Shown: piece after piece, positions 975-55,999 of the stretch
Position numbering within the stretch: position 1 is the first letter of the stretch
How the letters are laid out: the number at the start of each line of letters is the position of its first letter
NCBI GenBank assembly: GCA_023974075.1
Contig: JAMFTG010000211.1
Coordinates: forward strand, 27,501-91,500
DNA length: 64,000 bases
Reading direction: 5' to 3'
DNA from: Chaenocephalus aceratus
Lineage: Eukaryota > Chordata > Actinopteri > Perciformes > Channichthyidae
Program-made: the position numbers and the translations under genes
Notes under the pieces: generated by a model
What the model was told of the DNA's origin: nothing
Database searches by the model: none
Seen by the model: only the letters and a program-made list of their open reading frames with translations

Positions 975-15904
<14,930 letters not shown>

Positions 15905-22248: not shown

Positions 22249-22254
22249 CCTATC
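22249..22254. repeat. target-site duplication CCTATC (left)
   Basis: Identical hexamer to 36,848-36,853, directly outside the AGTAGTAGTAATCATG terminus. Confidence 0.9.
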
Positions 22255-22389
22255 AGTAGTAGTAATCATGTTCCTTTCGTCAAAAAAGTGACAGGTGGTG
22301 TGACAGGTCACACCTCTCCCTACTTATGCAAATGAGCTAAGTCCCTTTGATGTCAGATTGGCGTGAAAGACCCCCCGGCGTGATTCTTT

Positions 22390-22740
22390 TGTTGTATCAA
22401 TTAAGATAGATAAGTATTTGACCCCTGACCCCGAGAGTGGAGTAATTGCCCCGCAATTAGATTAGCCCCAGGCACCCCCTTTGTGTATAGGTCTTTTATT
22501 GTATCAATTATGATAGTTAAGGTATTTGACCCCTGACCCCAAGAGTGGAGTAATTGCCCCGCAATTAGATTAGCCCCAGGCACCCCTTTGTGTATAGGTC
22601 TTTTGTTGTATCAATTAAGATAGTTAAGGTATCTGACCCCTGACCCCGTGAGTGGAGTAATTGCCCCGCAATTAGATTAGCCCCAGGCACCCCCTCTGTT
22701 GTATAGGTCTTTTTGATGTATTGAATAAGATAGTCTCTTT
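22390..22740. repeat. 108-bp subterminal tandem repeat, left arm (about 3 copies)
   Basis: Units contain TAATTGCCCCGCAATTAGAT and GACCCCTGACCCC. The same unit forms about 5 copies in the right arm. Subterminal location suggests a binding or replication array, which is inference. Confidence 0.9.
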
Positions 22741-22839
22741 GACCCCTCCCCCTCAGAGCCCTTTGTTGTCTAATCTAATTAGCCTTTGATGCCTACCCCT
22801 TTGATGTGTAATTTCACACTGATGAAAGCCTCTGTATAA

Positions 22840-23058
22840 ATGACTAGGCTACGACCATATAGAGATATGCTCAAAAATAAATTTAAAAAAGACAGACAAT
22901 TCAGCTTCCCAAGTCAACCGTCTGAAGCGCCAGTCAAGAAACGAATGCGACATCGGGGGGGTGGGTTCAGAGTACAGCCTCTTTCTGGTCATGTGTGTTG
23001 GAGGAGGGGCTCTGTAAGGAAGGTTGAAGGAACGAGCAGGATTTCTCCCCCGGTTTGA
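22840..23058 (+). pseudogene. gene 1 remnant of the palindromic element, left copy
   Basis: 72-codon frame starting MTRLRPYRDML. Residues about 29-36 (EAPVKKRM) match the GAPIKKRM motif of gene 2, and the DNA around it is nearly identical, so it is probably a decayed paralog of gene 2. Its 3' half resembles part of the TTAA-flanked MITE at 39,759. Not recognised otherwise; probably non-functional. Confidence 0.4.
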
Positions 23059-23101
23059 CTGCAAAAGACTCTGACTTTTCTCCAAGGGGCTCAGCCTACC
23101 C

Positions 23102-23145
23102 CTCAACATAACAAGCCCCACCTTTCCTCACCAGATCATTTAAAA
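23102..23145 (+). promoter_or_regulatory. shared promoter-like cassette, copy 1 left
   Basis: CTCAACATAACAAGCCCC followed by CTCACCAGATCATTTAAAA. TATA-like TTTAAAA at the 3' end. No convincing gene follows it. Confidence 0.6.
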
Positions 23146-24011
23146 ATGAGAACCCTACAAGGACATTATAGTTTTCAGCGTACTCTTTAGTTGTAGGTTT
23201 GTGAACTAATGTATAATTACTTTTATTAACTATAGGTTTTGCATCCATTAAAGTGTATCTTACAGTTCCTTTGTGAGTGAATTACGCACAAATCTGCAGA
23301 GTCTCACTAATATATATATATATATATATATATTCTTTATTTAACAGGTAAAAAAACTCATTGAGATTAAAATCTCTTTTCCACGAGTGACCTGGCCAAG
23401 AGGGACAGCATGTACAAAGTTACAACATATAAAACACAGACATGAAAGGCAGACAAATACAGCTGTAAAACACAAATAAAATGACACATTAGCCAGTCAA
23501 TATGCGAAGTAAAACAAACTATTAAAATCATTCAAAAACTGGCAACATTTAAAACGATTCCAGGATATCACTCACATCGACCAAAACTAAAAAAGTGTTA
23601 CACAGTGACTGATATTCTGTACGGGAGTTCACACCCGAGCTGCTGTAGGGAGTTGAGTATGTTATGGCTCTCGGGGTGGGTTAAGAGACAGATTCTTAGT
23701 TTTTGGACTGCCTCAGGGGGTTAACGAAATCTACTAAAAACAAAGTACTTCATGTAGGGAGTTGAGTATGTTATGGCTCTCGGGGGATGGTGGGTTAAGA
23801 GACAGATTCTTAGTTTTTGGACTGCCTCAGGGGGTTAACGAAATCTACTAAAAACAAAGTACTTCATTATCTACTTTTTTCAGCTTTTATACACAAAAGT
23901 GCAGGGAAGGTAGGCAGATTTAGAACACTGGGATAATACCCATAAAGAATGTGTGTTTCTGCTCCATTTCACTCCATGAAGCCTCCAGCTTGTACAGGGG
24001 CTCCGCCTCCA
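23146..24011. other. non-coding arm segment with duplicated block
   Basis: Contains a (TA)n run at about 23,310-23,332, a fish interspersed-repeat fragment (CTTTATTTAACAGGTAAAAA, about 23,336), and a 115-bp direct duplication (about 23,645-23,755 and 23,758-23,868). The duplicated block includes GTTAACGAAATCTACTAAAA, also present in altered form at 31,516 in the centre. Confidence 0.7.
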
Positions 24012-24054
24012 CTCAACATAACATGTCCCGCCCTCCTCACCAGATCATTTAAAA
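24012..24054 (+). promoter_or_regulatory. shared promoter-like cassette, copy 2 left (gene 2)
   Basis: ACTCAACATAACATGTCCCG then CTCACCAGATCATTTAAAA, 95 bp upstream of the gene 2 ATG. Confidence 0.7.
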
Positions 24055-24148
24055 GTAAGGGGATGGAAATAGACGAAAATAAATACGCTCAAACTAGATA
24101 ACAGGCCAGTCATTTCCAATCACCAAGGCACTTTTTCAAAAAAGAAAA

Positions 24149-24697
24149 ATGGCAAAGAGAAGCATAGATATGGGTTTAATCAGCGAGACGCCTGTGACAA
24201 CGTACAGCCATCAGTCCGGAGCGCCAATCAAGAAACGAATGCAATATATGTGCCGGGTTCAGACGCCTCCAGCCGAAGAACTTCATGAAGAATGGACTCT
24301 GAAAAATGGCGATGTTTGGGGTTATGTATTCAACTATATGGCGAATGAACTGCATTTCTACAATCTGAAGAATGGAGAAACGTACGGACCCCGCAGTGTT
24401 AAAGCGACACTGACCTCAACAGATTGGGCTGTGTTAACTCTGGTGTCTTCCAGAGATCTCCACGCAACCACGGTACCGGAAGAAGTAGTGCATCAAGAAA
24501 CCATAGTGGAACCAGCGGTGTACAAGATATTTGCAAAGAAAAGCAAAGAAACACAGACAGCATGCGAGATCAAAGAAGAGATTTCACCGCCGCCCCTCAA
24601 TGTGGAGGAAGAAAGAGTTATTTCCCCGCTGCCAGAAGTGAGAAGAGTCCTGACAAGCACCGTCTGGGAAACTAAAAGCGGACCATCGGGGCGATGA
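24149..24697 (+). CDS. gene 2 of the palindromic element, left copy (182 aa, unknown)
   Basis: Starts ATGGCAAAGAG with the shared cassette upstream. The protein has an N-terminal basic GAPIKKRM motif (possible nuclear signal), a central EEWTLKNGDVWGYVF / GETYGPRSVKATL region that suggests a small beta-rich domain, and an acidic, proline-containing C-terminal part. It ends at a TGA (24,695-24,697) followed in the same frame by about 83 further open codons (24,698-24,949). The right-arm copy differs by one residue and has the same TGA. Family not recognised. Confidence 0.75.
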   Translation: MAKRSIDMGLISETPVTTYSHQSGAPIKKRMQYMCRVQTPPAEELHEEWTLKNGDVWGYVFNYMANELHFYNLKNGETYGPRSVKATLTSTDWAVLTLVSSRDLHATTVPEEVVHQETIVEPAVYKIFAKKSKETQTACEIKEEISPPPLNVEEERVISPLPEVRRVLTSTVWETKSGPSGR

Positions 24698-24949
24698 TAT
24701 TACCGTGCAAGCCATTTGGAGACGCTGGGGAAGGACCCCTCTGATGATTTTGTTTTGGAGATTTTTAATTCTACATGTGGAGTATTTCAGACAGCAGTGC
24801 GGGTGCCATTGACTGCTTGGCTGACAATGATTGATGGAAAAGCTACAAAGCTTAAAGAACTTTTTAAACAGAGTCAGACATCGATGGACATTATACTGGT
24901 GAAAAAGAATCTCACCTTTACAGAGGACTCTGCCTCCCACTCAACATAA
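24698..24949 (+). other. in-frame open extension downstream of the gene 2 stop
   Basis: Same frame as gene 2, open from the TGA to TAA at 24,947-24,949, containing DDFVLEIFNSTCGVFQTAVR. It has no ATG of its own near the start. It may be a domain separated by a nonsense change, or reached by stop read-through. Confidence 0.5.
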
Positions 24950-24982
24950 CAAGTCACACCCTCCTCACCAGATCATTTTAAA
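24940..24982 (+). promoter_or_regulatory. shared promoter-like cassette, copy 3 left (small ORF)
   Basis: CTCAACATAACAAGTCACACC then CTCACCAGATCATTTTAAA, overlapping the end of the gene 2 extension and about 50 bp upstream of a 42-codon ORF. Confidence 0.65.
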
Positions 24983-25032
24983 CTAAGGACCCCTCAAAGA
25001 AAGACATTGTGTATTCTACCTATGTAAAAAGA

Positions 25033-25161
25033 ATGTCGGGGTTGTCTCTGTATCAAGAAGATGTGTTTAAAAATGAATTTTGTGAAAAATACCAACTGTA
25101 TGAGAGACGTCATAAAGACACTCATTTTAACCACAGTGTTTGTTCTCTACAAATGTTTTAA
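25033..25161 (+). CDS. small ORF of the palindromic element, left copy (42 aa)
   Basis: Starts ATG and follows the copy 3 cassette. The right-arm copy has a C-x2-C-H-x3-H-x2-H-x2-C cluster (residues 23-37), a plausible zinc knuckle. In this left copy the first two cysteines are Tyr and Arg, so it has probably lost metal binding. Unknown family. Confidence 0.45.
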   Translation: MSGLSLYQEDVFKNEFCEKYQLYERRHKDTHFNHSVCSLQMF

Positions 25162-25700
25162 GATTGTTACAAAATGTAAAAAATAAAAATAAAAGGTATG
25201 GAGACTAAATTAATTCAGGTGACTCTGGCTTTATTAGGAAAACAAACATATAATACAAATGGGTTAGGGGTTAAATGTAACCATCGTGGACTTAATAGTC
25301 TAACAAAATACTTTTATCTGAATACATATATATTTGAAATTATTTATTTATTATTTCAGTGGAACAATCCAGTTTTTGTTAACATTAACGCTTTCTTCTC
25401 TTTTTCTTGTGTTACTAAAATACTTTTAGACACACTTTGGCGTATGCAACACTTGTTCAGATAAACAAGGTTTTTTCTTTTCTGATAAACTTACATATTT
25501 TAGTTATTTTATGTTACCAAGATACTTTGAGATACACCCTGATGTACGCAACTATACTTTTCTGACTTTTTTCTGTAGAATCGTGACAAAACTATTACTT
25601 GTTCTTAAATGATGACCTATTGCTGGAGATGAGATGAAAAAGCTACAACGCTTAAAGAACTTTTTTCTAAAAACTCTCAATTCTATAATTGACTACCCCC
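25162..25700. other. non-coding arm segment
   Basis: A/T-rich with AATAAA-type signals near 25,183-25,195 and two diverged copies of a block of about 110 bp (GTTACTAAAATACTTTTAGA at 25,411; GTTACCAAGATACTTTGAGA at 25,513). Confidence 0.6.
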
Positions 25701-25746
25701 ATTCAACGCAATAAGCCCTACGCTCCACTCAGCAAATCATCTAAAA
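25701..25746 (+). promoter_or_regulatory. shared promoter-like cassette, copy 4 left (gene 3)
   Basis: TTCAACGCAATAAGCCCTA then CTCAGCAAATCATCTAAAA, with leader AAGGACCTCGCTAAGACGA and ATG 37 bp downstream. Confidence 0.7.
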
Positions 25747-25783
25747 CGAAGGACCTCGCTAAGACGACCGTTGTAAACTAGCC

Positions 25784-26281
25784 ATGGAGCAGAGAAAAGC
25801 CAAGACTCCCCCCGCGAGTTGCAGCCAGGAACAGAGTCCACCAGCAACACCACCATGTGGGAACCCCGAATCTTGCAATACTACTGCTGCTGATTTTGCT
25901 CCTTGGGCCAAAACGTCTCTGTTTATGGACACAGTGAAAGCGGTGTTGGTTGATATTGTGGAGAGGGTGATACATCGGTACAGAGAAGAAATATGCAACA
26001 GGTGCCAAGTCAGTCACCCCGGCCAGAGGCAACACGATTTTCTGAATGACATGTCCGATTTTTACTTCAGAAACAATTACAACGCGTTAATGAAAAGACT
26101 CTGGCTCACCGACTTCATTACTGAGATCGACCAGACTCTTAATGATAAAGACATTTTCACGGATGATTGGAGGATCCAAGGCGCTTCGGAGGCTTTTCTT
26201 CACAATCTCAAAAATTGCAGACGCCTCAAGGAGAGACTTGAAAAGATCCATGCCGAGTTGGATGGAGAAGAAGAAGACTAA
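25784..26281 (+). CDS. gene 3 of the palindromic element, left copy (165 aa, unknown)
   Basis: Starts ATGGAGCAGAG in a GCCATGG context. It has a Pro/Ser/Cys-rich N-terminal 40 residues, then a helical region with a possible metal site C-x2-C-x3-H-x5-H (ICNRCQVSHPGQRQH; ICNGC in the right copy). The C-terminal helix is charged and ends in an acidic tail. Likely a small regulatory or DNA-associated protein; function unknown. The right-arm copy differs at two residues. Confidence 0.75.
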   Translation: MEQRKAKTPPASCSQEQSPPATPPCGNPESCNTTAADFAPWAKTSLFMDTVKAVLVDIVERVIHRYREEICNRCQVSHPGQRQHDFLNDMSDFYFRNNYNALMKRLWLTDFITEIDQTLNDKDIFTDDWRIQGASEAFLHNLKNCRRLKERLEKIHAELDGEEED

Positions 26282-26352
26282 TAACCAGCAGTTGGATGGA
26301 GAAGCCAGGGACTTGTTCGATACATTGACTTTTTTCTTTGAGTAAAATAAAA

Positions 26353-26667
26353 ATGGGAAACTACTATGCAAAACGCTCTGTATATATTGATCATAATGTA
26401 GTCCTTACCCGTTTAATAAGTGTGATGATGGGGACGATTGAAAACAGAACGAGTAGTGACCCCTGTGTAAAAAGAATGGCTGAAGTTTGTAAACTAGAAG
26501 ACATTTTGGATATCGTTCGTTCTGGCAGTACTATTCCGGGTCATTGGGAAACGATTGTAAACGAAATATTTAAAGTGGTCCTGGAATCTTCATTTTCCGA
26601 AACATTCTGTAACATTATCTCAGAAATGAAACAAACATCAAAAGTGTATCATGTGCTCTCATTGTAT
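26353..26667 (+). pseudogene. gene 4 of the palindromic element, left copy, 5' part (split by hAT)
   Basis: ATG at 26,353 (MGNYYAKRSVYIDH), 105 codons, then interrupted by a hAT transposon inserted at CATTGTAT. The frame resumes at 31,038 for 49 codons. A GHWETIVNEIFKVV segment is loosely reminiscent of a Bcl-2 BH1 region, which adintovirus-like genomes sometimes encode. The resemblance is too weak to assign. Confidence 0.7.
26660..26667. repeat. hAT target-site duplication CATTGTAT (left)
   Basis: Matches 31,030-31,037. The uninserted right arm has this octamer once. Confidence 0.95.
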
Positions 26668-27026
26668 CAGTGTTAATTTCGTTAACGAAAACTATGACGA
26701 AAAATGTTCGTCAACGACCTTTTTTACATGACTAAGACGAGACGATGACGAGCTAAAAATAGATTCTTGATAACGAAAACTATGACGAAATGTAAATGTA
26801 GTTTTCGTTGACGAGACGAGACGAGACGAAGGTGTTAAGGGTGGACTATCGGACATTAAAAATGCAGGATATTATTTTCCTCCAATTGTCCGTCTTCTCT
26901 TTCAAAATGCATCCCTGTCATTGGTTGAATTATTTGGGATTCTGGGAATTTGCACACCTCACTCACCCCCGCCCACCCCAGCTTCACTGCAGCAGCACAG
27001 GTGGTGATGATATCCAAACAGTGAAG

Positions 27027-30005
27027 ATGACGGATTCAGCGAAAGCGCTTTTAGTTTTTGGTCGCAAAAAAAGAATAGATATATGGACCAACTTTCTTTA
27101 TAACTCAGTAGAAAATAAAACACACTGCACTGCAACTGCGGGAGAAGGAGAGACGCCATGTGGCTTCAAATTAGTTGGGAAGAATACGACTAACCTGAAG
27201 AGGCACTTGAAGGCGCACCATCCTGCTATTTATGCCACGGTAAGTTAGCTAACTGTAACGTTACATGATAAGTCGTAACTAACTCGTATGTGGTAACGCT
27301 AACTAAGCATATACATTTGCTAACGTTAAGTCTATGTTACTGGGCAGTCTGCATTGGCAAGTTGCCATTGCCAATGCAGACTGCTAGCTAGTCACTAGTT
27401 ACTAGAGGCAAATGTACTAACTATCTATGTTAGCTTAGCCTTTCTTGCAAACACGTTTTCAGTTTCCGGTAGCAAATGAATGATTCTGGCAAGTTCCAGG
27501 CTAATGTTGGCTGGGCTTGCATTGCAATAACTATCTAGTCACTGCAATTATTGTGTGTTTTTTAAGAGTACACGGCAATTTATTTGGAAAATACTTTCTT
27601 ATCTCTAAGGCCAGGTAGGCATATATAATAGGCTAGTTGTATTGTATTATCACATAATTAGAATCTTCAAAATCTAAACTTGATATTATTGATATATTAT
27701 ATTTTAATGATAATACTATTACCAAAGGCATATTTTAAAGGGATTAGCCTACATTTAATTAATTGGAATTCATCTGTAGGCATTGTAGTTCTGTATAGGG
27801 AGTAATTATGCAATCTTATTTTTCCTCACCTAGATCCCAGAGACGAGTACTCCAAAACAGCAACCTGGTGCAAAGAATAAACAGTCAACTATCCCAGCAG
27901 CGTTCTCTTCCTCAGGACCAAAATATAAAGCAGACTCGCTGGAACAAGGCACCAAAGAAAAGGTCATTGCCCAGTGGATTGGACGCACCGGTCTACCTGC
28001 CCGTACAGTTGAGGATGAGGATTTCATCCTTATGATAGAGACCTTCGATAAGAGGCTGAACATACCCAAAAAAACAAAAATAAACAACTTAGTTGACAAG
28101 CTTTACATTGACGAGAAACAAAAATTCAAAGAAAGACTCGCCACAGCACGTAAAGTAACAATTGGGCTGGACATATGGACAAAAAAAGGGTTTACAGCAT
28201 CATTCCTGGCAATTAGTGCATGTTACTTTTGCACTCAGGAGAATAAAGCGAAGCACATATTGTTGAGACTTGACCAGATCTCCCACCCACACACTGCAGA
28301 GTCTATAAAGACTTGTGTGGAACAATGCACAGAGGACTGGGGAATACCAAAACACAACATTTTGACAGTCATAACAGATAACGGAAGCAACATGGTTGCA
28401 GCATTCAAAAAAACTGTACAAGATGAGCCCAGCAGCTCTGAGGAAGAATCCCAGGAGAGTGATGAGGAAGACTCTGAGGTTGTCGAAGACCGAAGGTACA
28501 TTATTTTAGTTTGTAGCTGTTAATATTTTCAGTATTTTCAGTAGCAGGCTCAATGACATAGATCATGTCATTGAGCTGTGCTTGGTTATATTCTCTTTTA
28601 GCATTTATATTACTTTATTTACCCAGAGGGAAATTATTTTGCAGCAGTTGTGGTAAAAAGTAAGATAGTGCAAATATATAGACTTCAAGTATAAACTAAA
28701 TATTAGAGTATAAAAGATCAACAGTAACTTGGTACAAAACCAAATGTACAGCCAGAAATGTGACAGTGTAACGGTATGGATCATAATAAGTATAGATGTA
28801 AAGATGTGTGTTAATACGTTGTATATTGTATCGCATTGTGTTGCTCATGGCAATTACATTTCCTAGAGGATTAATAAAGTATTTGTCTTTTTCTCTGTGT
28901 TTGTTTATCTAGGTACGGAGCCATAGAGAGGACCCCCTGTGTTGTACATACACTGCAACTCGTGGTGAACATGATCCAGAAAGATTTGAGTGTCAAACCA
29001 CTCCTTGACAGAATACGAGTACTTGTCCGGCTCTTCCGCAAGTCGTCTGTGGCAATTCAGCGACTGCTAAAGCTGTGTGGACTCACTCTGGTCAAAGACT
29101 GCCCTACTAGATGGTCCAGCACATACCTGATGATATCACGCCTTCTCCAAGTGAAGGACTCCCTTGTTCAGGTAGCTGATGGAATGGGCTGGGACTGTCT
29201 ACTGCTAAGTGAGTGGCAGAAGCTCACTGCTCTCAGAGATCTGCTCCTCCCCTTTGCTGAGGACACCCAGATGCTCCAGAGTGACACAATGTCCTTATCC
29301 CTGGTGTTGCCCGCCCTCCTGGACCTGAATGCTCACCTCTCTGAGTTCCCTGAGGCCCAGGGTTCTTGCCACAGGGACCTAGCTTCCCTGTCACAGAAGA
29401 TGAAGGAAAACATGGGCCAACGCTTCAGCTGCTTTCTTGATCCCAGTGATACAAAATTCTCTCCCCTCATTGCTGCAGCATGCTTCCTCGACCCTACAGT
29501 CTCACCCGAAACACTCATTGAAAATGAGCATGACGACGTACAAATCCAGGAGCTTCTGAGAAAAGCAGAAGATTACATTGCTCAGATGGTGTCACCAGTA
29601 ATACGGGAGGAGGAGACTGATGAGGATGAAGAAGAAAGGAGAGAGGTACCACTACCAGAGACAAAGCGGCCGAGATTTAGATTCCTGTCAAAAGCAAGTG
29701 CAAGCCGGCCATCTAGATCTAGCCTCTCAGTCTCAAAGCCCTGTGTCAGGCAGGAAATGCTGAAGTTCAAGGAGCAGCTGTCACAGCCCATGAACAAAGA
29801 GACTGCTCTTGACTTTTGGGCTGCACAGGGTTCTGTTTATCAGAGCCTAAAACCTCTTGCCTTGGATCTTCTGGCAATGCCAGCATCTCAAGCATTTGCT
29901 GAGCGAGTTTTTAGCATCACAGGTGACCTCACTCGTGGCCGTCGAAATAGAGCAAGAGTCATTTTAGAGAGAAGTGCTTTCCTCAAACTGAATAGAGATC
30001 AGTAG
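27027..30005 (+). CDS. hAT transposase with BED zinc finger, 655 aa, three exons
   Basis: Exons 27,027-27,239, 27,834-28,495 and 28,913-30,005 (stop TAG), joined by GT-AG introns with consistent phases (0 and 2), give an uninterrupted reading frame. A BED zinc finger lies at about residues 20-65 (C34, C45, H60, H64/65). RNase-H-fold aspartates lie in GLDIWTKKG (D184) and VITDNGSNM (D253). The hAT C/H motif is TPCVVHTLQ (C301, H304), followed by CPTRWSSTYL and the C-terminal hAT dimerisation block (DLLAMPASQAFAERVFSITG). An acidic Ser/Glu/Asp-rich loop precedes exon 3. It catalyses cut-and-paste transposition of the surrounding element. Confidence 0.92.
27344..27384. repeat. perfect hairpin in hAT intron 1
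   Basis: 17-bp arms (GCAGTCTGCATTGGCAA and its complement at 27,368-27,384) with a 7-base loop. Confidence 0.85.
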
Positions 30006-31029
30006 GCTAAAAGGTTGTTAATGCTACTACGGATGTCTGTACTTTGTCTGTTACTTTATATGAGAGTGCACTACAGAGGTGGTTCCCTCTGATTGTTTAT
30101 AAGGCCAAGTTTATTCAAGGTTTATCTTATTCTATAGGTATGTACTGTATGCACTTTCAACATTTTTATTTTATTTGTAGGTACAGAAACGTATAATGTT
30201 AAGGTGAGGGATAGTTTTATACAACAATTTATACTTTATAATTTATACAAGTTACTGCTTTGCACTGCATCTTGTGAGGGATGACCCTCTGTTCTGACAA
30301 GTTACTGACACACCATTGATAAATGTAGAGAGTCTACAATGGACTACAGTTTGAGTCACTGAGCTAACTCAAGTCTGTAATTTTCGTGATCCAAAACTTC
30401 AGGTGTCATGTCATTGTTCATCATTTATTGCTCTGTTTTGGGCATACGTGTCTTCACTTTTATTGGAGGTTTCGGAAAATAAATATAAGAAGGCTAAAAA
30501 AAATAATGTTTTGGTTCTTGACTTGGAGTAAAGAACATTCCACTATGTTACCAGTACCACTTGTATCTATGTGTATGCACTATCCTTACCTTAGAGGATC
30601 AGCAAGGACAACACAACAGTATTGCACCAATGTGAGAGTCTAGGCTAGAGATATCAAACTAACTAAGTAAAGGGTTAAGAGAGTGAAATGTTGCTTTACA
30701 AATTTCAACACTTGATACGGTCACCTTGATTCCAATTTCAGATACCTGTATTTGCCTAACTGAATTGGTTTAAAGAGAGAAAACATTTTGACTTAAAGTT
30801 AACTAAAATGTAATTTTTCATCGACTAAAACTGGACTAAAACTAGACTAAAACGTTTTGAGTTTTCGTCGACTAAAACTAGACTAAAACGTTTTGAGTTT
30901 TCGTCGACTAAAACTAGACTAAAACTATAAAGGATAGAAATGACTAAAATGTGACTAAAACTAATAACCATTTTCGTCTAAAGACTAAGACTAAGACTAA
31001 CTCAAAAATAGCTGCCAAAATTAACACTG

Positions 31030-31037
31030 CATTGTAT
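31030..31037. repeat. hAT target-site duplication CATTGTAT (right)
   Basis: Second copy of the octamer generated by hAT insertion. Confidence 0.95.
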
Positions 31038-31187
31038 GCTCTGTTTGTAGATGTAATGCATCTGTGTGTTGAAAACAGCATACACGTGAATATTTTGACT
31101 GAAGTGAAAAAACTCCATCACGATATCTCCAGTAATATGGGGAATTCTAAGCTGGAGACTGTCCTGGGGATGCTACAATCAGTATAA
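31038..31187 (+). pseudogene. gene 4 left copy, 3' part after the hAT
   Basis: Resumes the gene 4 frame for 49 codons plus TAA. After about 9 residues the sequence leaves the inverted repeat, so its C-terminal (VENSIHVNILTEVKKLHHDI...) is unique to this copy and differs from the right-arm version. Confidence 0.7.
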
Positions 31188-32175
31188 CTATTGATTTTGT
31201 GTGTGAAAAAAATAAAAAAAGTGGTTTTTTTACATCTAAAAACTGTTGTCATCATTATAGCAAGGGGAGCGTGTCTGATACATGTGTATTACAGTCCTTC
31301 TTGTTGTGTTTTTCAGTGTTTTTCAGTGTTTTCTGTGTGTCTGTACACACAAAGCACACTTCATTATCTACTTTTCAGTTTTTTAAAAGAAAAGTGTATC
31401 TTTCGGTAACTTTCTCAGAGAATTTAAGCATAAATCTGTCAAATGTTCAAAACAGCCTTGTTTCACTGAAATACCCTCAAAATGAAATGACAAACTGCCA
31501 TTAAGAGTCAGAATCCTAACGAAATCTCCTCAAACAGAGTACTTTCTACAGATGAAGCCTCCCACTCAACGCAATATGTCCCACCCACTCAGCAAATCAT
31601 ATAAAACTAAGGACGACCGTTAAAAACTAGCCATGGATCTGAGAAAAACCAAGTCTGATGTAGCCTGCCCTTATTCTCACCAGGATAACGGATATGGGCT
31701 TAATGACTGGATGTTACAAAGTAGGGGAGAGGATGTTCCCGAAGAAGAGCTCTCCTCTATATCATATCCATGTAAGGTCTTTAGGACAAAAGAGGACCAT
31801 GATAACATGACTTATGAAGAATATCTTTCTTTAAAAGATGGTATTATAGATAACCTTTATAGAAACAGTATATCTCATACCACTCGCCAAGATCGCAAAC
31901 GACAATTAGCAGAAAAGAATAGAAAAAGTAAAGAAAAACGAAGAAAAAGCAACATGAAAAGGAGAAGAAAAATTAAAAGCAAACGCAGAATGCGAATGAA
32001 AAGAAAAGGGACCATAGGACGGAAAACTAAAAAGACAAAAAGAAGGAAGGTGAAAAGAAAAAGAAACAAAGTGAAGAAATTTAAACTAGAGGATGGTGTT
32101 GTAGAGCCATTACCGGATCATAATAATCTTATAGATCATCTCCCGCTAACCGACTGCTGCGAATGTGTTGAACAA
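31065..32175. other. unique centre of the palindromic element
   Basis: Between the inverted arms. It holds the end of left gene 4, a non-coding stretch of about 380 bp (31,188-31,564) and the basic-protein gene. Confidence 0.8.
31565..31606 (+). promoter_or_regulatory. shared promoter-like cassette, centre copy (basic protein)
   Basis: ACTCAACGCAATATGTCCC then CTCAGCAAATCATATAAAA. The leader and GCCATGG start context are almost the same as for gene 3. Confidence 0.72.
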
Positions 32176-32220
32176 AGATGCATTACATCTACAAACAGAG
32201 CATACAATGAGAGCACATGA
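31633..32220 (+). CDS. lysine/arginine-rich basic protein (195 aa)
   Basis: Starts MDLRKTKSDVACPYSHQDNG. Residues about 80-150 are an almost continuous Lys/Arg tract (KRRRKIKSKRRMRMKRKGT and similar), followed by an acidic/Cys C-terminal (LPLTDCCECVEQRC). Strongly basic proteins of this kind act as DNA-condensing core proteins in adenovirus-like and Polinton-like viruses. That role is inference. Its last 15 codons lie in the right arm and overlap, antisense, the end of right gene 4. Confidence 0.65.
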   Translation: MDLRKTKSDVACPYSHQDNGYGLNDWMLQSRGEDVPEEELSSISYPCKVFRTKEDHDNMTYEEYLSLKDGIIDNLYRNSISHTTRQDRKRQLAEKNRKSKEKRRKSNMKRRRKIKSKRRMRMKRKGTIGRKTKKTKRRKVKRKRNKVKKFKLEDGVVEPLPDHNNLIDHLPLTDCCECVEQRCITSTNRAYNEST

Positions 32221-32516
32221 TACACTTTTGATGTTTGTTTCATTTCTGAGATAATGTTACAGAATGTTTCGGAAAATGAAGATTCCAGGACCACTTTAAA
32301 TGTTTCGTTTACAATCGTTTCCCAATGACCCGGAATAGTACTGCCAGAACGAACGATATCCAAAATGTCTTCTAGTTTACAAACTTCAGCCATTCTTTTT
32401 ACACAGGGGTCACTACTCGTTCTGTTTTCAATCGTCCCCATCATCACACTTATTAAACGGGAAAGGACTACATTATGATCAATATATACAGAGCGTTTTG
32501 CATAGTAGTTTCCCAT
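32136..32516 (-). CDS. gene 4, right copy (126 aa, uninterrupted)
   Basis: Mirror of 26,353; carries the empty hAT target. After HLC it runs out of the repeat into the unique centre, giving a different, shorter C-terminal (STHSQQSVSGR) than the left copy. It overlaps the 3' end of the basic-protein gene tail to tail. Function unknown. Confidence 0.6.
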   Translation of the reverse strand: MGNYYAKRSVYIDHNVVLSRLISVMMGTIENRTSSDPCVKRMAEVCKLEDILDIVRSGSTIPGHWETIVNETFKVVLESSFSETFCNIISEMKQTSKVYHVLSLYALFVDVMHLCSTHSQQSVSGR

Positions 32517-32587
32517 TTTTATTTTACTTAAAGAAAAAAGCCAATGTATCGAACAAGTCCCTGGCTTCTCCATCCAACTGCTGGTTG

Positions 32588-33085
32588 TTAGTCTTCTTCT
32601 TCTCCATCCAACTCGGCATGGATCTTTTCAAGTCTCTCCTTGAGGCGTCTGCAATTTTTGAGATTGTGAAGAAAAGCCTCCGAAGCGCCTTGGATCCTCC
32701 AATCATCCGTGAAAATGTCTTTATCATTAAGAGTCTGGTCGATCTCAGTAATGAAGTCGGTGAGCCAGAGTCTTTTCATTAACGCGTTGTAATTGTTTCT
32801 GAAGTAAAAATCGGACATGTCATTCAGAAAATCGTGTTGCCTCTGGCCGGGGTGACTGACTCGGCACCCGTTGCATATTTCTTCTCTGTACCGATGTATC
32901 ACCCTCTCCACAATATCAACCAACACCGCTTTCACTGTGTCCATAAACAGAGACGTTTTGGCCCAAGGAGCAAAATCAGCAGCAGTAGTATTGCAAGATT
33001 CGGGGTTCCCACATGGTGGTGTTGCTGGTGGACTCTGTTCCTGGCTGCAACTCGCGGGGGGAGTCTTGGCTTTTCTCTGCTCCAT
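32588..33085 (-). CDS. gene 3, right copy (165 aa)
   Basis: Mirror of 25,784-26,281. The zinc-site region reads ICNGCRVSHPGQRQH here. Same length and start context. Confidence 0.75.
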   Translation of the reverse strand: MEQRKAKTPPASCSQEQSPPATPPCGNPESCNTTAADFAPWAKTSLFMDTVKAVLVDIVERVIHRYREEICNGCRVSHPGQRQHDFLNDMSDFYFRNNYNALMKRLWLTDFITEIDQTLNDKDIFTDDWRIQGASEAFLHNLKNCRRLKERLEKIHAELDGEEED

Positions 33086-33121
33086 GGCTAGTTTACAACG
33101 GTCGTCTTAGCGAGGTCCTTC

Positions 33122-33168
33122 GTTTTAGATGATTTGCTGAGTGGAGGGTAGGGCTTATTGCGTTGAAT
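33122..33168 (-). promoter_or_regulatory. shared promoter-like cassette, copy 4 right (gene 3)
   Basis: Reverse complement of the 25,701 cassette. Confidence 0.7.
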
Positions 33169-33723
33169 GGGGGTAGTCAATTATAGAATTGAGAGTTTTT
33201 AGAAAAAAGTTCTTTAAGCGTTGTAGCTTTTTCATCTCATCTCCAGCAATAGGTCATCATTTAAGAACAAGTAATAGTTTTGTCACGATTCTACAGAAAA
33301 AAGTCAGAAAAGTATAGTTGCGTACATCAGGGTGTATCTCAAAGTATCTTGGTAACATAAAATAACTAAAATATGTAAGTTTATCAGAAAAGAAAAAACC
33401 TTGTTTATCTGAACAAGTGTTGCATACGCCAAAGTGTGTCTAAAAGTATCTTAGTAACACAAGAAAAAGAGAAGAAAGCGTTAATGTTAACAAAAACTGG
33501 ATTGTTCCACTGAAATAATAAATAAATAATTTCAAAAAGTGCGCTTAAAAAGAACAAATGTATTCAGATAAAAGTATTTTGTTAGACTATTAAGTCCACG
33601 ATGGTTACATTTAACCCCTAACCCATTTGTATTATATGTTTGTTTTCCTAATAAAGCCAGAGTCACCTGAATTAATTTAGTCTCCATACCTTTTATTTTT
33701 ATTTTTTACATGTTGTAACAATC
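33169..33723. other. non-coding arm segment (mirror of 25,162-25,700)
   Basis: Differs from the left arm by a small insertion near 33,537-33,560 (AAAAAGTGCGCTTAAAAAGA region). No gene. Confidence 0.6.
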
Positions 33724-33852
33724 TTAAAACATTTGTAGAGAACAAACACTGTGGTTAAAATGAGTGTCTTTATGACATCTCTCACACAGTTGGTATTTTT
33801 CACAAAATTCATTTTTAAACACATCTTCTTGATACAGAGACAACCCCAACAT
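33724..33852 (-). CDS. small ORF of the palindromic element, right copy (42 aa, putative zinc knuckle)
   Basis: Mirror of 25,033-25,161 with the metal-ligand-like residues intact: C23, C26, H27, H31, H34, C37 (LCERCHKDTHFNHSVC). It has its own promoter cassette upstream. Short, and supported only by two-copy conservation and context. Confidence 0.5.
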   Translation of the reverse strand: MLGLSLYQEDVFKNEFCEKYQLCERCHKDTHFNHSVCSLQMF

Positions 33853-33901
33853 TCTTTTTACATAGGTAGAATACACAATGTCTTTCTTTGAGAGGTCCTT
33901 A

Positions 33902-33945
33902 GTTTAAAATGATCTGGTGAGGAGGGTGTGACTTGTTATGTTGAG
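33902..33945 (-). promoter_or_regulatory. shared promoter-like cassette, copy 3 right (small ORF)
   Basis: Reverse complement of the 24,940 cassette. Confidence 0.65.
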
Positions 33946-34187
33946 TGGGAGGCAGAGTCCTCTGTAAAGGTGAGATTCTTTTTCACCAGTATAATGTCCA
34001 TCGATGTCTGACTCTGTTTAAAAAGTTCTTTAAGCTTTGTAGCTTTTCCATCAATCATTGTCAGCCAAGCAGTCAATGGCACCCGCACTGCTGTCTGAAA
34101 TACTCCACATGTAGAATTAAAAATCTCCAAAACAAAATCATCAGAGGGGTCCTTCCCCAGTGTCTCCAAATGGCTTACACGGTAATA
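33936..34187 (-). other. in-frame open extension downstream of the gene 2 stop, right copy
   Basis: Mirror of 24,698-24,949; open in the gene 2 frame after the same TGA. Confidence 0.5.
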
Positions 34188-34736
34188 TCATCGCCCCGAT
34201 GGTCCGCTTTTAGTTTCCCAGACGGTGCTTGTCAGGACTCTTCTCACTTCTGGCAGCGGGGAAATAACTCTTTCTTCCTCCACATTGAGGGGCGGCGGTG
34301 AAATCTCTTCTTTGATCTCGCATGCTGTCTGTGTTTCTTTGCTTTTCTTTGCAAATATCTTGTACACCGCTGGTTCCACTATGGTTTCTTGATGCACTAC
34401 TTCTTCCGGTACCGTGGTTGCGTGGAGATCTCTGGAAGACACCAGAGTTAACACAGCCCAATCTGTTGAGGTCAGTGTCGCTTTAACACTGCGGGGTCCG
34501 TACGTTTCTCCATTCTTCAGATTGTAGAAATGCAGTTCATTCGCCATATAGTTGAATACATAACCCCAAACATCGCCATTTTTCAGAGTCCATTCTTCAT
34601 GAAGTTCTTCGGCTGGAGGCATCTGAACCCGGCACATATATTGCATTCGTTTCTTGATTGGCGCTCCGGACTGATGGCTGTACGTTGTCACAGGCGTCTC
34701 GCTGATTAAACCCATATCTATGCTTCTCTTTGCCAT
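34188..34736 (-). CDS. gene 2, right copy (182 aa)
   Basis: Mirror of 24,149-24,697; one residue difference (RVQM for RVQT). Cassette upstream at 34,831. Confidence 0.75.
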   Translation of the reverse strand: MAKRSIDMGLISETPVTTYSHQSGAPIKKRMQYMCRVQMPPAEELHEEWTLKNGDVWGYVFNYMANELHFYNLKNGETYGPRSVKATLTSTDWAVLTLVSSRDLHATTVPEEVVHQETIVEPAVYKIFAKKSKETQTACEIKEEISPPPLNVEEERVISPLPEVRRVLTSTVWETKSGPSGR

Positions 34737-34830
34737 TTTTCTTTTTTGAAAAAGTGCCTTGGTGATTGGAAATAACTGGCCTGTTATCTAGTTTGAGCGT
34801 ATTTATTTTCGTCTATTTCCATCCCCTTAC

Positions 34831-34873
34831 TTTTAAATGATCTGGTGAGGAGGGCGGGACATGTTATGTTGAG
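34831..34873 (-). promoter_or_regulatory. shared promoter-like cassette, copy 2 right (gene 2)
   Basis: Reverse complement of the 24,012 cassette. Confidence 0.7.
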
Positions 34874-35740
34874 TGGAGGCGGAGCCCCTGTACAAGCTGG
34901 AGGCTTCATGGAGTGACATGGATCAGAAACACACATTCTTTATGGGTATTATCCCAGTGTTCTAAATCTGCCTACCTTCCCTGCACTTTTGTGTATAAAA
35001 GCTGAAAAAAGTAGATAATGAAGTACTTTGTTTTTAGTAGATTTCGTTAACCCCCTGAGGCAGTCCAAAAACTAAGAATCTGTCTCTTAACCCACCATCC
35101 CCCGAGAGCCATAACATACTCAACTCCCTACATGAAGTACTTTGTTTTTAGTAGATTTCGTTAACCCCCTGAGGCAGTCCAAAAACTAAGAATCTGTCTC
35201 TTAACCCACCATCCCCCGAGAGCCATAACATACTCAACTCCCTACAGCAGCTCGGGTGTGAACTCCCGTACAGAATGTCAGTCACTGTGTAACACTTTTT
35301 TAGTTTTGGTCGATGTGAGTGATATCCTGGAATCGTTTTAAATGTTGCCAGTTTTTGAATGATTTTAATAGTTTGTTTTACTTCGCATATTGACTGGCTA
35401 ATGTGTCATTTTATTTGTGTTTTATAGCTGTATTTGTCTGCCTTTCATGTCTGTGTTTTATATGTTGTAACTTTGTACATGCTGTCCCTCTTGGCCAGGT
35501 CACTCGTGGAAAAGAGATTTTAATCTCAATGAGTTTTTTTACCTGTTAAATAAAGAATATATATATATATATATATTAGTGACACTCTGCAGATTTGTGT
35601 GTAATTCACTCACAAAGGAACTGTAAGATACACTTTAATGGATGCAAAACCTATAGTTAATAAAAGTAATTATACATTAGTTCACAAACCTACAACTAAA
35701 GAGTACGCTGAAAACTATAATGTCCTTGTAGGGTTCTCAT
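34874..35740. other. non-coding arm segment (mirror of 23,146-24,011)
   Basis: Carries the same 115-bp direct duplication, interspersed-repeat fragment and (TA)n run. Confidence 0.7.
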
Positions 35741-35784
35741 TTTTAAATGATCTGGTGAGGAAAGGTGGGGCTTGTTATGTTGAG
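35741..35784 (-). promoter_or_regulatory. shared promoter-like cassette, copy 1 right
   Basis: Reverse complement of the 23,102 cassette. Confidence 0.6.
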
Positions 35785-35827
35785 GGGTAGGCTGAGCCCC
35801 TTGGAGAAAAGTCAGAGTCTTTTGCAG

Positions 35828-36049
35828 TCAAACCGGGGGAGAAATCCTGCTCGTTCCTTCAACCTTCCTTACAGAGCCCCTCCTCCAACACACATGACCA
35901 GAAAGAGGCTGTACTCTGAACCCACCCCCCCCCCGATGTCGCATTCGTTTCTTGACTGGCGCTTCAGACGGTTGACTTGGTAAGCTGAATTGTCTGTCTT
36001 TTTTAAATTTATTTTTGAGCATATCTCTATATGGTCGTAGCCTAGTCAT
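35828..36049 (-). pseudogene. gene 1 remnant, right copy
   Basis: 73-codon mirror of 22,840-23,058, differing by length changes in a poly-C/G run near 35,926-35,934. Probably non-functional. Confidence 0.4.
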
Positions 36050-36164
36050 TTATACAGAGGCTTTCATCAGTGTGAAATTACACATCAAAGGGATAGGCAT
36101 CAAAGGCTAATTAGATTAGACAACAAAGGGCTCTGAGGGGGAGGGGTCAAAGAGACTATCTTAT

Positions 36165-36720
36165 TCAATACATCAAAAAGACCTATACAACAGAGGGGGT
36201 GCCTGGGGCTAATCTAATTGCGGGGCAATTACTCCACTCACGGGGTCAGGGGTCAGATACCTTAACTATCTTAATTGATACAACAAAAGACCTATACACA
36301 AAGGGGTGCCTGGGGCTAATCTAATTGCGGGGCAATTACTCCACTCTCGGGGTCAGGGGTCAAATACCTTAACTATCTTAATTGATACAATAAAAGACCT
36401 ATACACAAAGGGGGTGCCTGGGGCTAATCTAATTGCGGGGAAATTACTCCACTCTTGGGGTCAGCGGTCAAATACCTTAACTATCATAATTGATACAATA
36501 AAATACCTAAACACAAAGGGGCTGCCTGGGGCTAATCTAATTGCGGGGCAATTACTCCACTCTTGGGGTCAGGGGTCAAATACCTTAACTATCTTAATTG
36601 ATACAATAAAAGACCTATACACAAAGGGGGTGCCTGGGGCTAATCTAATTGCGGGGCAATTACTCCACTCTCGGGTCAGGGGTCAAATACTTTAACTATC
36701 TTAATTGATACAACAAAAGA
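36165..36720. repeat. 108-bp subterminal tandem repeat, right arm (about 5 copies)
   Basis: Same unit as 22,390-22,740. The period is a multiple of three, so one frame stays open through the array, which creates a 129-codon ORF that need not be coding. Confidence 0.9.
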
Positions 36721-36847
36721 ATCACGCCGGGTCTTTCACGCCAATCTGACATCAAAGGGACTTAGCTCATTTGCATAAGTAGGGAGAGGTGTGACCTGTC
36801 ACACCACCTATCACTTTTTTGACGAAAGGAACATGATTACTACTACT

Positions 36848-36853
36848 CCTATC
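36848..36853. repeat. target-site duplication CCTATC (right)
   Basis: Matches 22,249-22,254. Confidence 0.9.
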
Positions 36854-54245: not shown

Positions 54246-55552
54246 ATGGCAGATGTAGACGCATTTATCAGGGCTCCGTCTCAGGAAGCCCTTGGCAATT
54301 TCTCAATGGAGCAGCTGCTCGTTATTGCTTAACATTTCTCGGTGGATATCGTCAGCGATAAGAGGCTAGAAAGCACTATAAAAGACTCTATTGTGTCGGC
54401 ATTAGGTGCAACGGGAGTGCCTCCGGCAGAGAAAGGAGGGGTGTTGTTAAAACCGCTGTTGCAGGCTAGTTCACTGTCCTTTGAGCAGCAGAAGGAGATG
54501 TTATTGTTGCAGCTGAGTCATGACAAAAGGAGGTATGAGATGGAGTTTGAAAAGGAAATTGCGGTGGAGCGGATGCGGCAGGAGACTGAGAAAGCCAAAC
54601 TGGATATGGAAGGACAACGTCTTTCTATGGTCAGAGATGGTGCGGTGTTGGGTGAGTGGCACGGTGAGCAGGTTCCCAGGTCTCAGGCCCGGTTCGATGT
54701 TAACAACTTGCGCTTGTTACCGCAATTTAATGAAAGTGATCCTGACACTTTTTTTTTGCTTTTTGAATGGGTAGCTAAGGCTAGGGATTGGCTGGATGCT
54801 GACTGTGCCCTGGTGCTTCAGTGTGTGCTCACAGGAAGAGCACAGTCCGCATATTCTGCGTTATGTCCGGAGGACATACAAACTCGTTCCTGAGGCTTAT
54901 CGACAGCGTTTTAGGTCCTTGGAGAAAAAACAGGGTCAAACATATGTGGAAATGGCGAGGGATTTGTCTGTTCATTTTAAACATTTGGTTAGCTGCTCTG
55001 GATATCACTTCTTTTGACAATTTGGGTGAACTCATGATTTTGGAACAGTTCAAAAACATTCTTCCTGACAATATTGCTACTTATATAACAGAACACAGAG
55101 TAACTTTGGCGTCCGAAGCTGCGGTGGCAGCGGATGAGTTTGTGTTACTTCATAAGGGGAGGTTCGGAGGGCGCGCGGGAGCTCTACCTGTTTTTGAAGG
55201 AAGTAGAAGGGCTGTTGATGTTGGTTCATTGGGGATGGATCCAAAGAAAGTGGCTTGGGAAAAATCTGAGGATACTTGTAACTATTGTCGTGAGAAAGGC
55301 CATTGGAAACCAGAATGTCCGGCGCTTAGAGCAAAATCCAAGGGAGGAAAATGTGTGGGTAAACCAGTTGCATTAGCTGTTCCGGTGAAAAGCTGCTGTG
55401 TTGACGAGGTGCTTACGGACCACTTATGGGGATCAGAGGTTTTGGCATCCTATGCTCCTTTTATAAGAGAGGGCTTGGTGTCATTGGTAGGTAGGAATGT
55501 CAGAGTTCCAATTACAATTTTGAGGGATACACCTGTATCCCTCAAAATTTGA
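54246..55552 (+). pseudogene. gag with SCAN-like capsid region and zinc knuckle, broken
   Basis: ATG at 54,246 (MADVDAFIRAPSQ); in-frame TAA at 54,330. Next comes a coiled-coil Glu/Lys/Arg-rich segment (about 54,470-54,620). A capsid segment with LLPQFNESDPDTFFLLFEWV breaks near 54,870 with a deletion plus frameshift. YKLVPEAYRQRFR, then ILPDNIATYITEHRVTLASE and AADEFVLLHK follow in other frames. CCHC knuckle CNYCREKGHWKPEC at about 55,277-55,318. The PEAYRQRFR...AADEFVL pattern is the SCAN-like fold from which vertebrate SCAN domains are thought to derive. Confidence 0.8.
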
Positions 55553-55811
55553 CTCCTTTATCGTTTTATCGTTGACTCCTTTATCGCCTTTGTCTGTGGA
55601 AAGTGACACTGGTGACACGGTTCGGAGTCGGGGGATGGGATTAGCGGTTTTCCCTGTTCCTGTTCATAAGATGTATCTTGACTGTGACCTTGTTAAAGGG
55701 GAGGTAGCTTTTGGTGTACGTCCAGCTTTTCCAATCGAGAGTATACATTTCATTCTGGGTAACGATTTGGCAGGTGGTAGAGTCTGGGCTGATGTTCCCT
55801 CTGTGTTGTGA
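55500..55811 (+). pseudogene. retropepsin-like protease remnant
   Basis: ITILRDT precedes the catalytic motif, but the expected DTGAS sequence is replaced at 55,531-55,549 by a short inverted repeat. The distal part (MYLDCDLVKGEVAFGVRPAF, HFILGNDLAGG) is recognisable in another frame. Confidence 0.7.
55516..55549. repeat. perfect 15-bp palindrome inside the protease
   Basis: AATTTTGAGGGATAC and its exact reverse complement separated by ACCT, followed by a short direct duplication (GACTCCTTTATCG twice). Confidence 0.95.
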
Positions 55812-55999
55812 GTCACTGGTGGTCTGATTGAGTCAGGATCTGAGAAGCGCTCTCCAGTGGTGCCAGATGTCACGGCCTCGTGTGTGATCACACGTGCTAG
55901 GGCCAAAAGGGATCATGACTTGCTACCAGATGGAAAGTCAACTGACACAGTGGAGGTTCCATCTTTGTCTGAGTTTTCGGTATTACTTAACACCATGAG

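What the first reader, a model, noticed from the sequence alone, without database searches (positions are those of the whole stretch)
22249..36853. Polinton-like element that is almost entirely a giant inverted repeat
Directly seen: termini AGTAGTAGTAATCATG in inverted orientation, exact 6-bp duplication CCTATC, two arms of about 4.4-4.7 kb carrying the same genes, and a unique centre of about 1.1 kb. Known: Polintons/Mavericks and adintoviruses have 5'-AG termini and 6-bp duplications, but as I recall their terminal repeats are usually around 1 kb or less. Inference: this is a non-autonomous, accessory-gene-only derivative whose terminal repeats expanded (as in poxvirus-type repeat expansion) or which arose by end-to-end duplication of one viral end. 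No core replication, integration or capsid gene is visible, so it would have to move in trans.
Basis: partly seen in the sequence, partly recalled or inferred. Interest (0 to 1): 0.92.

Follow-up and report, generated by a model that had tools for sequence, protein, structure and literature searches.

The report
Mirror-image satellite of fish Polinton viruses
A stretch of fish DNA looks like a parasite of a virus-like mobile element, built as two mirror-image copies of the same few genes, and related copies elsewhere in the genome indicate that this mirror structure was itself copied and spread.

Summary
Element 22255-36847 has exact inverted AGTAGTAGTAATCATG ends, a 6-bp duplication (CCTATC) and arms of about 4.4 and 4.7 kb differing at 36 of 4,406 aligned bases, around a 1.1-kb unique centre; a hAT transposon sits in the left arm. 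The own genome shows it is not a one-off. All seven convergent pairs of exact termini carry 6-bp duplications (six perfect, one 5 of 6). One, C1:38.85M, is a Polinton with integrase and PolB, whose terminal repeat is about 96% identical to the window's ends. A 47-mer of the central gene has 330 hits; the 100 listed include 31 convergent pairs. One palindrome junction has 62 hits, so a palindrome was propagated as a unit. The window copy is a recombinant: palindrome-family interior, Polinton-type end on both arms with the same crossover, and a junction found once. Its arms share derived changes, including a premature stop, so they evolved in concert. Best reading: a non-autonomous Polinton satellite, an end-to-end duplicate made by snap-back (panhandle) replication and inserted by a helper's integrase. 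The mechanism is inferred; duplications, relatives and shared junction are shown.

The parts
22249..22254 (.). 6-bp target site duplication CCTATC, left
22255..26667 (+). left arm of the palindrome (continues at 31038 after the hAT)
22255..23302 (+). outer about 1.05 kb of left arm: terminal repeat of the autonomous-Polinton type (96% to the right end of C1:38.85M over 1,053 columns); crossover zone about arm positions 930-1048
22385..22734 (+). tandem array, period 107 bp, 3.2 copies
23086..23145 (+). repeated promoter-like block (inference); its TCATTTAAAA-like core is at 23136, further copies at 24045, 24973, 25737, 31597 and, mirrored, 35750, 34840, 33912, 33132; also in helper-type ends L030, L031, L038
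24149..24697 (+). gene 2, left copy; premature stop shared with right copy
25784..26281 (+). gene 3, left copy, 165 aa (right copy predicted all-helical at low confidence)
26353..26667 (+). gene 4, left copy, interrupted by the hAT insertion
26668..31029 (+). nested hAT transposon (8-bp duplication CATTGTAT), Dimer_Tnp_hAT ORF at 28971-30005
31038..31062 (+). inner end of left arm
31063..32176 (+). unique centre: rest of gene 4, intergenic block, N-terminal part of gene 5
31633..32220 (+). gene 5 start (basic, NLS-like stretch by eye), truncated at the palindrome junction and running into the right arm
32160..32201 (.). palindrome junction gene 5 | reverse gene 4 (between 32176 and 32177); found once in the genome at up to 3 mismatches
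32177..36847 (-). right arm of the palindrome
32202..32516 (-). gene 4, right copy, truncated at the arm end
32588..33085 (-). gene 3, right copy
34188..34736 (-). gene 2, right copy, same premature stop
36176..36720 (-). tandem array, period 108 bp, 5.1 copies
36848..36853 (.). 6-bp target site duplication CCTATC, right

Best explanation
The element is an integrated copy of a non-autonomous Polinton/Maverick satellite whose genome is an inverted duplication of one viral end. Shown: Polinton-type ends and duplications; a sibling with integrase and PolB and the same kind of terminal repeat; a palindrome junction shared by dozens of loci; helper-type terminal repeat on both arms; arms that share derived changes. 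Inferred: as in other protein-primed linear replicons, an incomplete or displaced strand snapped back on itself and was copied, giving a molecule with the same end, and so the same replication origin and integrase site, at both ends. Later rounds through a panhandle or hairpin keep the two arms alike. A helper Polinton supplies polymerase, integrase and perhaps capsids in trans. The window copy recombined with a helper within about 118 bp of shared terminal-repeat DNA, and was later hit by a hAT transposon.
For: 6-bp duplications at 7 of 7 convergent exact-terminus pairs, window included (6 perfect, one 5 of 6). C1:38.85M (15.5 kb between termini) carries rve (E 9e-13) and DNA_pol_B_2 (E 3e-21); its ends match the window's outer 1 kb at 92-100% per 100-base step on the left arm, except that its left end has no match at 901-1000. 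Gene-5 47-mer: 330 hits, reversed-pattern control 0; the 100 listed include 31 convergent pairs, 27 of them spaced 802-810 bp, and no pair within 5 kb in another orientation. Palindrome junction 44-mer: 62 hits, control 0; 38 of 62 have a listed complete-gene-5 hit on the same strand upstream, 37 of these at 696-711 bp. Inner arms within an element are closer to each other than to any other copy in the 3 elements testable: 0.78% vs at least 1.47%, 0.47% vs at least 0.89%, 1.88% vs at least 7.16%. Window arms share 16 private states in 3,085 usable positions, 11 derived by outgroup. The premature stop in gene 2 is in both arms and in 0 of 6 other arms (5 elements) covering it.
Against: No replication intermediate or particle was seen. 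Arm likeness could also come from gene conversion in the chromosome. Of three further 12-kb elements chosen for end checks, one had a perfect 6-bp duplication, one matched 4 of 6 and one 2 of 6. Full arms were read in only a few copies; most of the 62 junction hits are known by their centre alone, and 24 of 62 had no listed complete-gene-5 partner. 38 of the 100 listed 47-mer hits were unpaired in that list. The window junction is unique, so it is not the propagated one. Single-arm private changes (11 and 12, together 23) outnumber the 16 shared ones. In C13 only 2 are shared against 4 and 2 single.
Confidence: 0.75

Rival explanations
1. The palindrome is Polinton-derived and mobile, but the arms are kept alike by gene conversion between the inverted arms after insertion in the chromosome, not by extrachromosomal replication.
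For: Inverted repeats in one locus are good conversion substrates (established knowledge); shared derived changes fit conversion as well. 24 of 3,092 inner-arm positions still differ.
Against: The helper-type ends reach exactly to the duplication on both sides with the same crossover zone, and one junction has 62 hits, so that palindrome predates its insertions. Neither excludes some later conversion.
Confidence: 0.22
2. The window copy is an internal-deletion derivative of the high-copy palindrome (loss of the gene 5 C-terminal half and part of the right arm), not an independently formed palindrome. This is compatible with the best explanation.
For: Its junction lies within about 20 bp, on both sides, of the 62-hit junction; its inner arms are about 98% like that family's; C13, C17, C23 and C4 show other extents of right arm.
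Against: It carries a few bases of gene 4 that the high-copy junction lacks, and helper-type ends; a separate palindrome made from a one-armed parent fits equally well.
Confidence: 0.5
3. Assembly artefact or a chromosomal inverted duplication of a single ordinary insertion.
For: Long inverted repeats are often misassembled; no reads were available.
Against: 36 arm differences and a one-sided hAT, a duplication flanking the whole palindrome, and palindromic relatives on other contigs with other duplications.
Confidence: 0.03
4. A Foldback/Galileo-like DNA transposon with expanded inverted repeats, unrelated to Polintons.
For: Such elements also have very long, internally repetitive inverted repeats (PMC3573991, start of abstract seen in the search listing only).
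Against: 6-bp duplications, (AGT)-type ends, and an integrase/PolB sibling with the same kind of terminal repeat.
Confidence: 0.02

Closest known systems
Vertebrate Mavericks/Polintons (PMC8097293, passages read)
   Same: (AGT)-type ends, 6-bp duplications, inverted terminal repeats; same-genome sibling with integrase and PolB
   Different: Published intact elements: 12.7-24.6 kb, terminal repeats 46-1,447 bp (mean 402). Here arms of 4.4-4.7 kb, no core gene found, palindromic. 'Palindrom' and 'nonautonomous' occur 0 times in that paper's main text.
Adintoviruses (PMC11071296, passages read)
   Same: Retrovirus-like integrase plus type B DNA polymerase in the helper candidate
   Different: No PolB or integrase found in the window element; hexon, penton, OTU domain and chromodomain were not tested, in the window or the helper
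Adenovirus defective genomes with inverted left-end duplication (recalled, no call)
   Same: Two copies of one genome end in inverted orientation, replication by a protein-primed helper
   Different: Here integrated in the genome with a target duplication, and related palindromes at dozens of loci
Invertron-type linear plasmids, e.g. pAL2-1 (PMC1864894, passages read)
   Same: Terminal-protein-primed linear DNA; panhandle-shaped intermediates are invoked there to explain long inverted repeats beside insertions
   Different: There the inverted repeats are of flanking mitochondrial DNA, not the element; no 6-bp duplication in the passages seen
Virophages/satellites (recalled)
   Same: Would depend on a related virus; promoter-like block shared with helper-type Polinton ends
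   Different: No capsid genes found; no infection data

Membership tests
Polinton/Maverick | 5'-AG/(AGT) ends in inverted orientation | tested here: met
   motif as in PMC8097293
Polinton/Maverick | 6-bp target site duplication | tested here: met
   window perfect; 7 of 7 exact-terminus pairs, one with a mismatch; three more: perfect, 4 of 6, 2 of 6
Polinton/Maverick | inverted terminal repeats within the published range (46-1,447 bp) | tested here: not met
   arms about 4.4 and 4.7 kb against the range in PMC8097293
Polinton/Maverick | protein-primed PolB, rve integrase, capsid genes in the element | tested here: not met
   of six window ORFs given to Pfam only the hAT passes a cut-off; no window place among the listed PolB hits (91 of 144 candidates scored); capsid not tested beyond Pfam. 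So a non-autonomous derivative, not a complete Polinton
Polinton/Maverick | sibling in the same genome with same ends and core genes (needed for a non-autonomous derivative) | tested here: met
   C1:38.85M
Adintovirus | OTU-PolB plus hexon plus chromodomain integrase | tested here: not met
   no PolB or integrase found in the window element; hexon, OTU and chromodomain not tested
Defective (snap-back) viral genome | inverted duplication of one genome end of a known parent | tested here: inconclusive
   ends match a helper Polinton, but genes 2-5 were not found together in a core-gene Polinton read here; L030 holds a 34% gene 3 relative and an 80.7% DNA match to the stretch between genes 2 and 3
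Defective (snap-back) viral genome | replication only with helper | not testable with these tools
   none
hAT transposon (nested) | 8-bp duplication and hAT dimerisation domain | tested here: met
Foldback/Galileo | transposase of that class (P superfamily) | not tested
   only Pfam on six ORFs, which shows hAT in the nested insertion

The most novel reading that the evidence does not exclude
A heritable class of palindromic satellites of Polinton viruses in vertebrates: an inverted dimer of one viral end, with its own accessory genes and helper-like promoters, that multiplies as a palindrome through snap-back replication (so both arms evolve in concert), borrows helper ends by recombination, and has colonised dozens of loci in one fish genome.
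Probability: 0.5. Interest if true: 0.85.

Novelty: new variant of a known kind. Interest (0 to 1): 0.72.

Why it matters
Polinton replication is inferred mainly from gene content (my reading of the field, recalled). A palindromic satellite at dozens of loci, with arms that change together, would be a genomic record of the replication intermediate and an in-genome test of protein-primed snap-back copying. It also suggests that vertebrate Polintons carry parasites of their own, much as adenoviruses produce defective genomes and giant viruses host virophages, and that such parasites can become genomic families. The promoter-like block shared with the helper, and dN/dS below 1 for genes 2 and 5 in the comparisons between subfamilies (no significance test), raise the question whether these genes help the satellite.

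Tried and rejected
Viral contigs: no relative of gene 3. The 16-mer terminus gave 19 hits in IMG/VR, about what chance gives for a 16-mer in such a collection (my estimate, no shuffled control); not pursued. No Pfam or PHROGs match above a cut-off or with a convincing E-value for genes 2-5. Structure: gene 3 all-helical, mean pLDDT 59, no fold match at E 0.001; gene 2 relative mean pLDDT 34, useless. PDB sequence search for genes 3 and 4: nothing convincing. A PC4-like reading of gene 2 and a Bcl-2-like reading of genes 3 and 4 were considered from the sequence and not supported. Rfam: nothing at gathering threshold in the window. dN/dS (Nei-Gojobori, no test) against C1:10.16M: gene 2 0.36-0.50 in 4 of 5 comparisons and 0.68 for C17, whose gene 2 reads in two overlapping pieces; gene 5 0.14-0.41 in 4 of 4; gene 3 0.74-1.22; gene 4 0.44-1.33 on few changes. 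Within the subfamily the counts are too small: gene 2 of window vs C23 has 6 nonsynonymous and 0 synonymous changes, gene 3 of the same pair 2.05, gene 5 of window vs C17 0.72. Literature: no paper on palindromic or non-autonomous Polintons among the rows listed (20 of 21, 20 of 23, 20 of 49, 12 of 25 and 3 of 3 rows shown); the library holds open-licence PMC papers only.
Full report
What is there. The element spans 22255-36847 between copies of CCTATC (22249-22254, 36848-36853). Its ends are exact inverted copies of AGTAGTAGTAATCATG, which has no other exact match in the window. The arms are 22255-26667 plus 31038-31062 on the left and 32177-36847 on the right, with a unique centre of 1,114 bp. 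The aligned arms differ at 36 of 4,406 positions and by 7 gap blocks, one of which is the non-arm tail of the stretch given. Most of the length difference comes from a 107/108-bp tandem array with 3.2 copies on the left and 5.1 on the right. A hAT transposon (26668-31029, duplication CATTGTAT, dimerisation domain E 4e-7) interrupts gene 4 in the left arm only. Without it the element is 10,223 bp.

Genes. Gene 2 (24149-24697 and 34188-34736), gene 3 (25784-26281 and 32588-33085) and gene 4 (26353 onward and the truncated right copy) are in both arms; gene 5 starts in the centre (31633) and is cut at the junction. None has a Pfam match above a cut-off. A promoter-like block with a TCATTTAAAA-like core occurs 9 times in the element; the core alone also occurs 4 times in the 49.4 kb of flanks, and the whole block stands in the helper-type ends L030, L031 and L038. 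That it is a promoter is inference.

The genome. The window lies in G000:C211 of a 1.06-Gb assembly, a teleost by inference. The 16-mer terminus has 26 exact hits there, against 2 for the reversed control. They form 7 convergent pairs, the window included; 6 of 7 have a perfect 6-bp duplication and one 5 of 6. The unpaired hits were not resolved to whole elements, except C4, a 4.9-kb copy. Of the 7, C1:38.85M is a Polinton: rve integrase, DNA_pol_B_2, a P-loop ATPase ORF below cut-offs, terminal repeats of about 1 kb. PolB gave 134 match segments in the genome. C1:10.16M is a palindrome with inverted blocks of 95-97% over about 6.6 kb of each half, C22:30.8M has inverted blocks of 96-97% plus weaker ones, and C15, C17 and C23 are 6.4-7.3 kb elements with terminal repeats of about 0.9-1.4 kb. 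C13, with one exact end, is palindromic around gene 5 with a junction of its own.

A propagated palindrome. A gene-5 47-mer has 330 hits with up to 3 mismatches (control 0). Among the 100 listed, 31 convergent pairs account for 62 hits; 27 pairs are spaced 802-810 bp, the others 511, 776, 794 and 817; 38 hits have no listed partner (partners with mismatches are not in the list); no pair within 5 kb is in another orientation. The centre of one such copy, L080, shows arms ending inside gene 5 and a unique centre of 697 bp holding the rest of gene 5 and, by eye, a gene 4 fragment. The 44-mer across that junction has 62 hits (control 0). For 38 of 62 a listed complete-gene-5 hit lies upstream on the same strand, 37 at 696-711 bp and one at 294; the other 24 had none among the 77 exact hits entered, of 148 complete-gene-5 hits in all. 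The family's terminal repeat has 104 hits; the 100 listed give 26 convergent pairs: 12 of 4.4-7.3 kb, 3 of 8.9-9.8 kb, 6 of 11.6-12.5 kb as a full palindrome would be, 2 of 13.6-14.1 kb and 3 over 18 kb; one neighbouring pair is not convergent. End checks on three of the six 12-kb pairs: C15 perfect GAGGAT, C16 4 of 6, C140 2 of 6.

The window copy is a recombinant. In 100-base steps its outer 1 kb matches C1:38.85M and C7 at 88-100% on both arms, except that the C1:38.85M left end stops matching near 900 (left arm) or 1,100 (right arm). Over 1,053 columns the right end of C1:38.85M is 96.1% identical to the left arm. Other palindrome-family copies fall to about 72% at 1-100 and to about 50% or no match around 801-900; further in, only the palindrome family matches well. 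Both kinds are near identical over about arm positions 930-1048, the likely crossover. [quoted passage not shown]

Concerted arms. At 3,085 positions covered by at least 3 of 6 other arms (5 elements), the window's inner arms share 16 private states, with 11 private to the left and 12 to the right. By the C1:10.16M outgroup 11 of the 16 are derived, 2 ancestral and 3 unresolved. One derived change is a premature stop in gene 2, in both arms and in none of 6 other arms (5 elements) covering it. In all three elements with two readable arms, the arms are closer to each other than to any other copy. C13 shows shared changes more weakly: 2 shared, 4 and 2 single in 1,476 positions. The inner-arm divergence of 0.78% would mean about 0.8-4 million years at recalled rates of 1-5e-9 per site per year, if the arms were identical at insertion.

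How it most likely works. Protein-primed linear replicons start at both ends, and displaced strands can form panhandles (established for adenovirus, recalled; stated for invertron plasmids in PMC1864894, passages read). If a strand from one end folds back and is copied, the product carries that end twice and keeps two origins and two integrase sites; the genes of the other end are lost, which is the content seen here. Repeated passage through a panhandle would carry a new end, or a stop codon, from one arm to the other. That explains helper-type ends on both sides, arm-shared changes and one junction with 62 hits. The snap-back step itself is inferred, and conversion in the chromosome remains a rival.

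Place among known things. It meets the end and duplication criteria of Polintons but not their gene content, and its arms are about three times the longest published terminal repeat (PMC8097293). It is best called a palindromic non-autonomous Polinton derivative.

Noticed in passing
G000: C15:2495649/2505904, C6:21989633/21999174, C21:23796486/23806505: C-terminal PolB fragments lie in outward-facing inverted pairs about 10 kb apart, each around a gene-5 hit: perhaps a palindrome subfamily whose arms carry a piece of PolB.
   Followed up: no
G000: C13:17939868/17939991, C21:21498059/21498182, C283:163215/163931, C192:67363/68060: The palindrome junction occurs twice in opposite orientation within 0.1-0.7 kb, as if the centre itself had been duplicated symmetrically.
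   Followed up: no
junctions in C211, C13, C17, C16 (L041, L033, L042): Gene-5 breakpoints of four elements fall within about 25 bp of one another, a possible breakage or template-switch hotspot; C23 and C4 break elsewhere in gene 5.
   Followed up: partly
window 54803-58822: Long ORFs that read like gag, integrase and reverse transcriptase of an LTR retrotransposon (by eye only).
   Followed up: no
window 12699-13592: Minisatellite of 25-bp units, 93-98% matches.
   Followed up: no
window 5321-5929 and 11464-12128: Long CT-rich and CTGTGTGTCG tandem arrays, which make spurious long ORFs.
   Followed up: no
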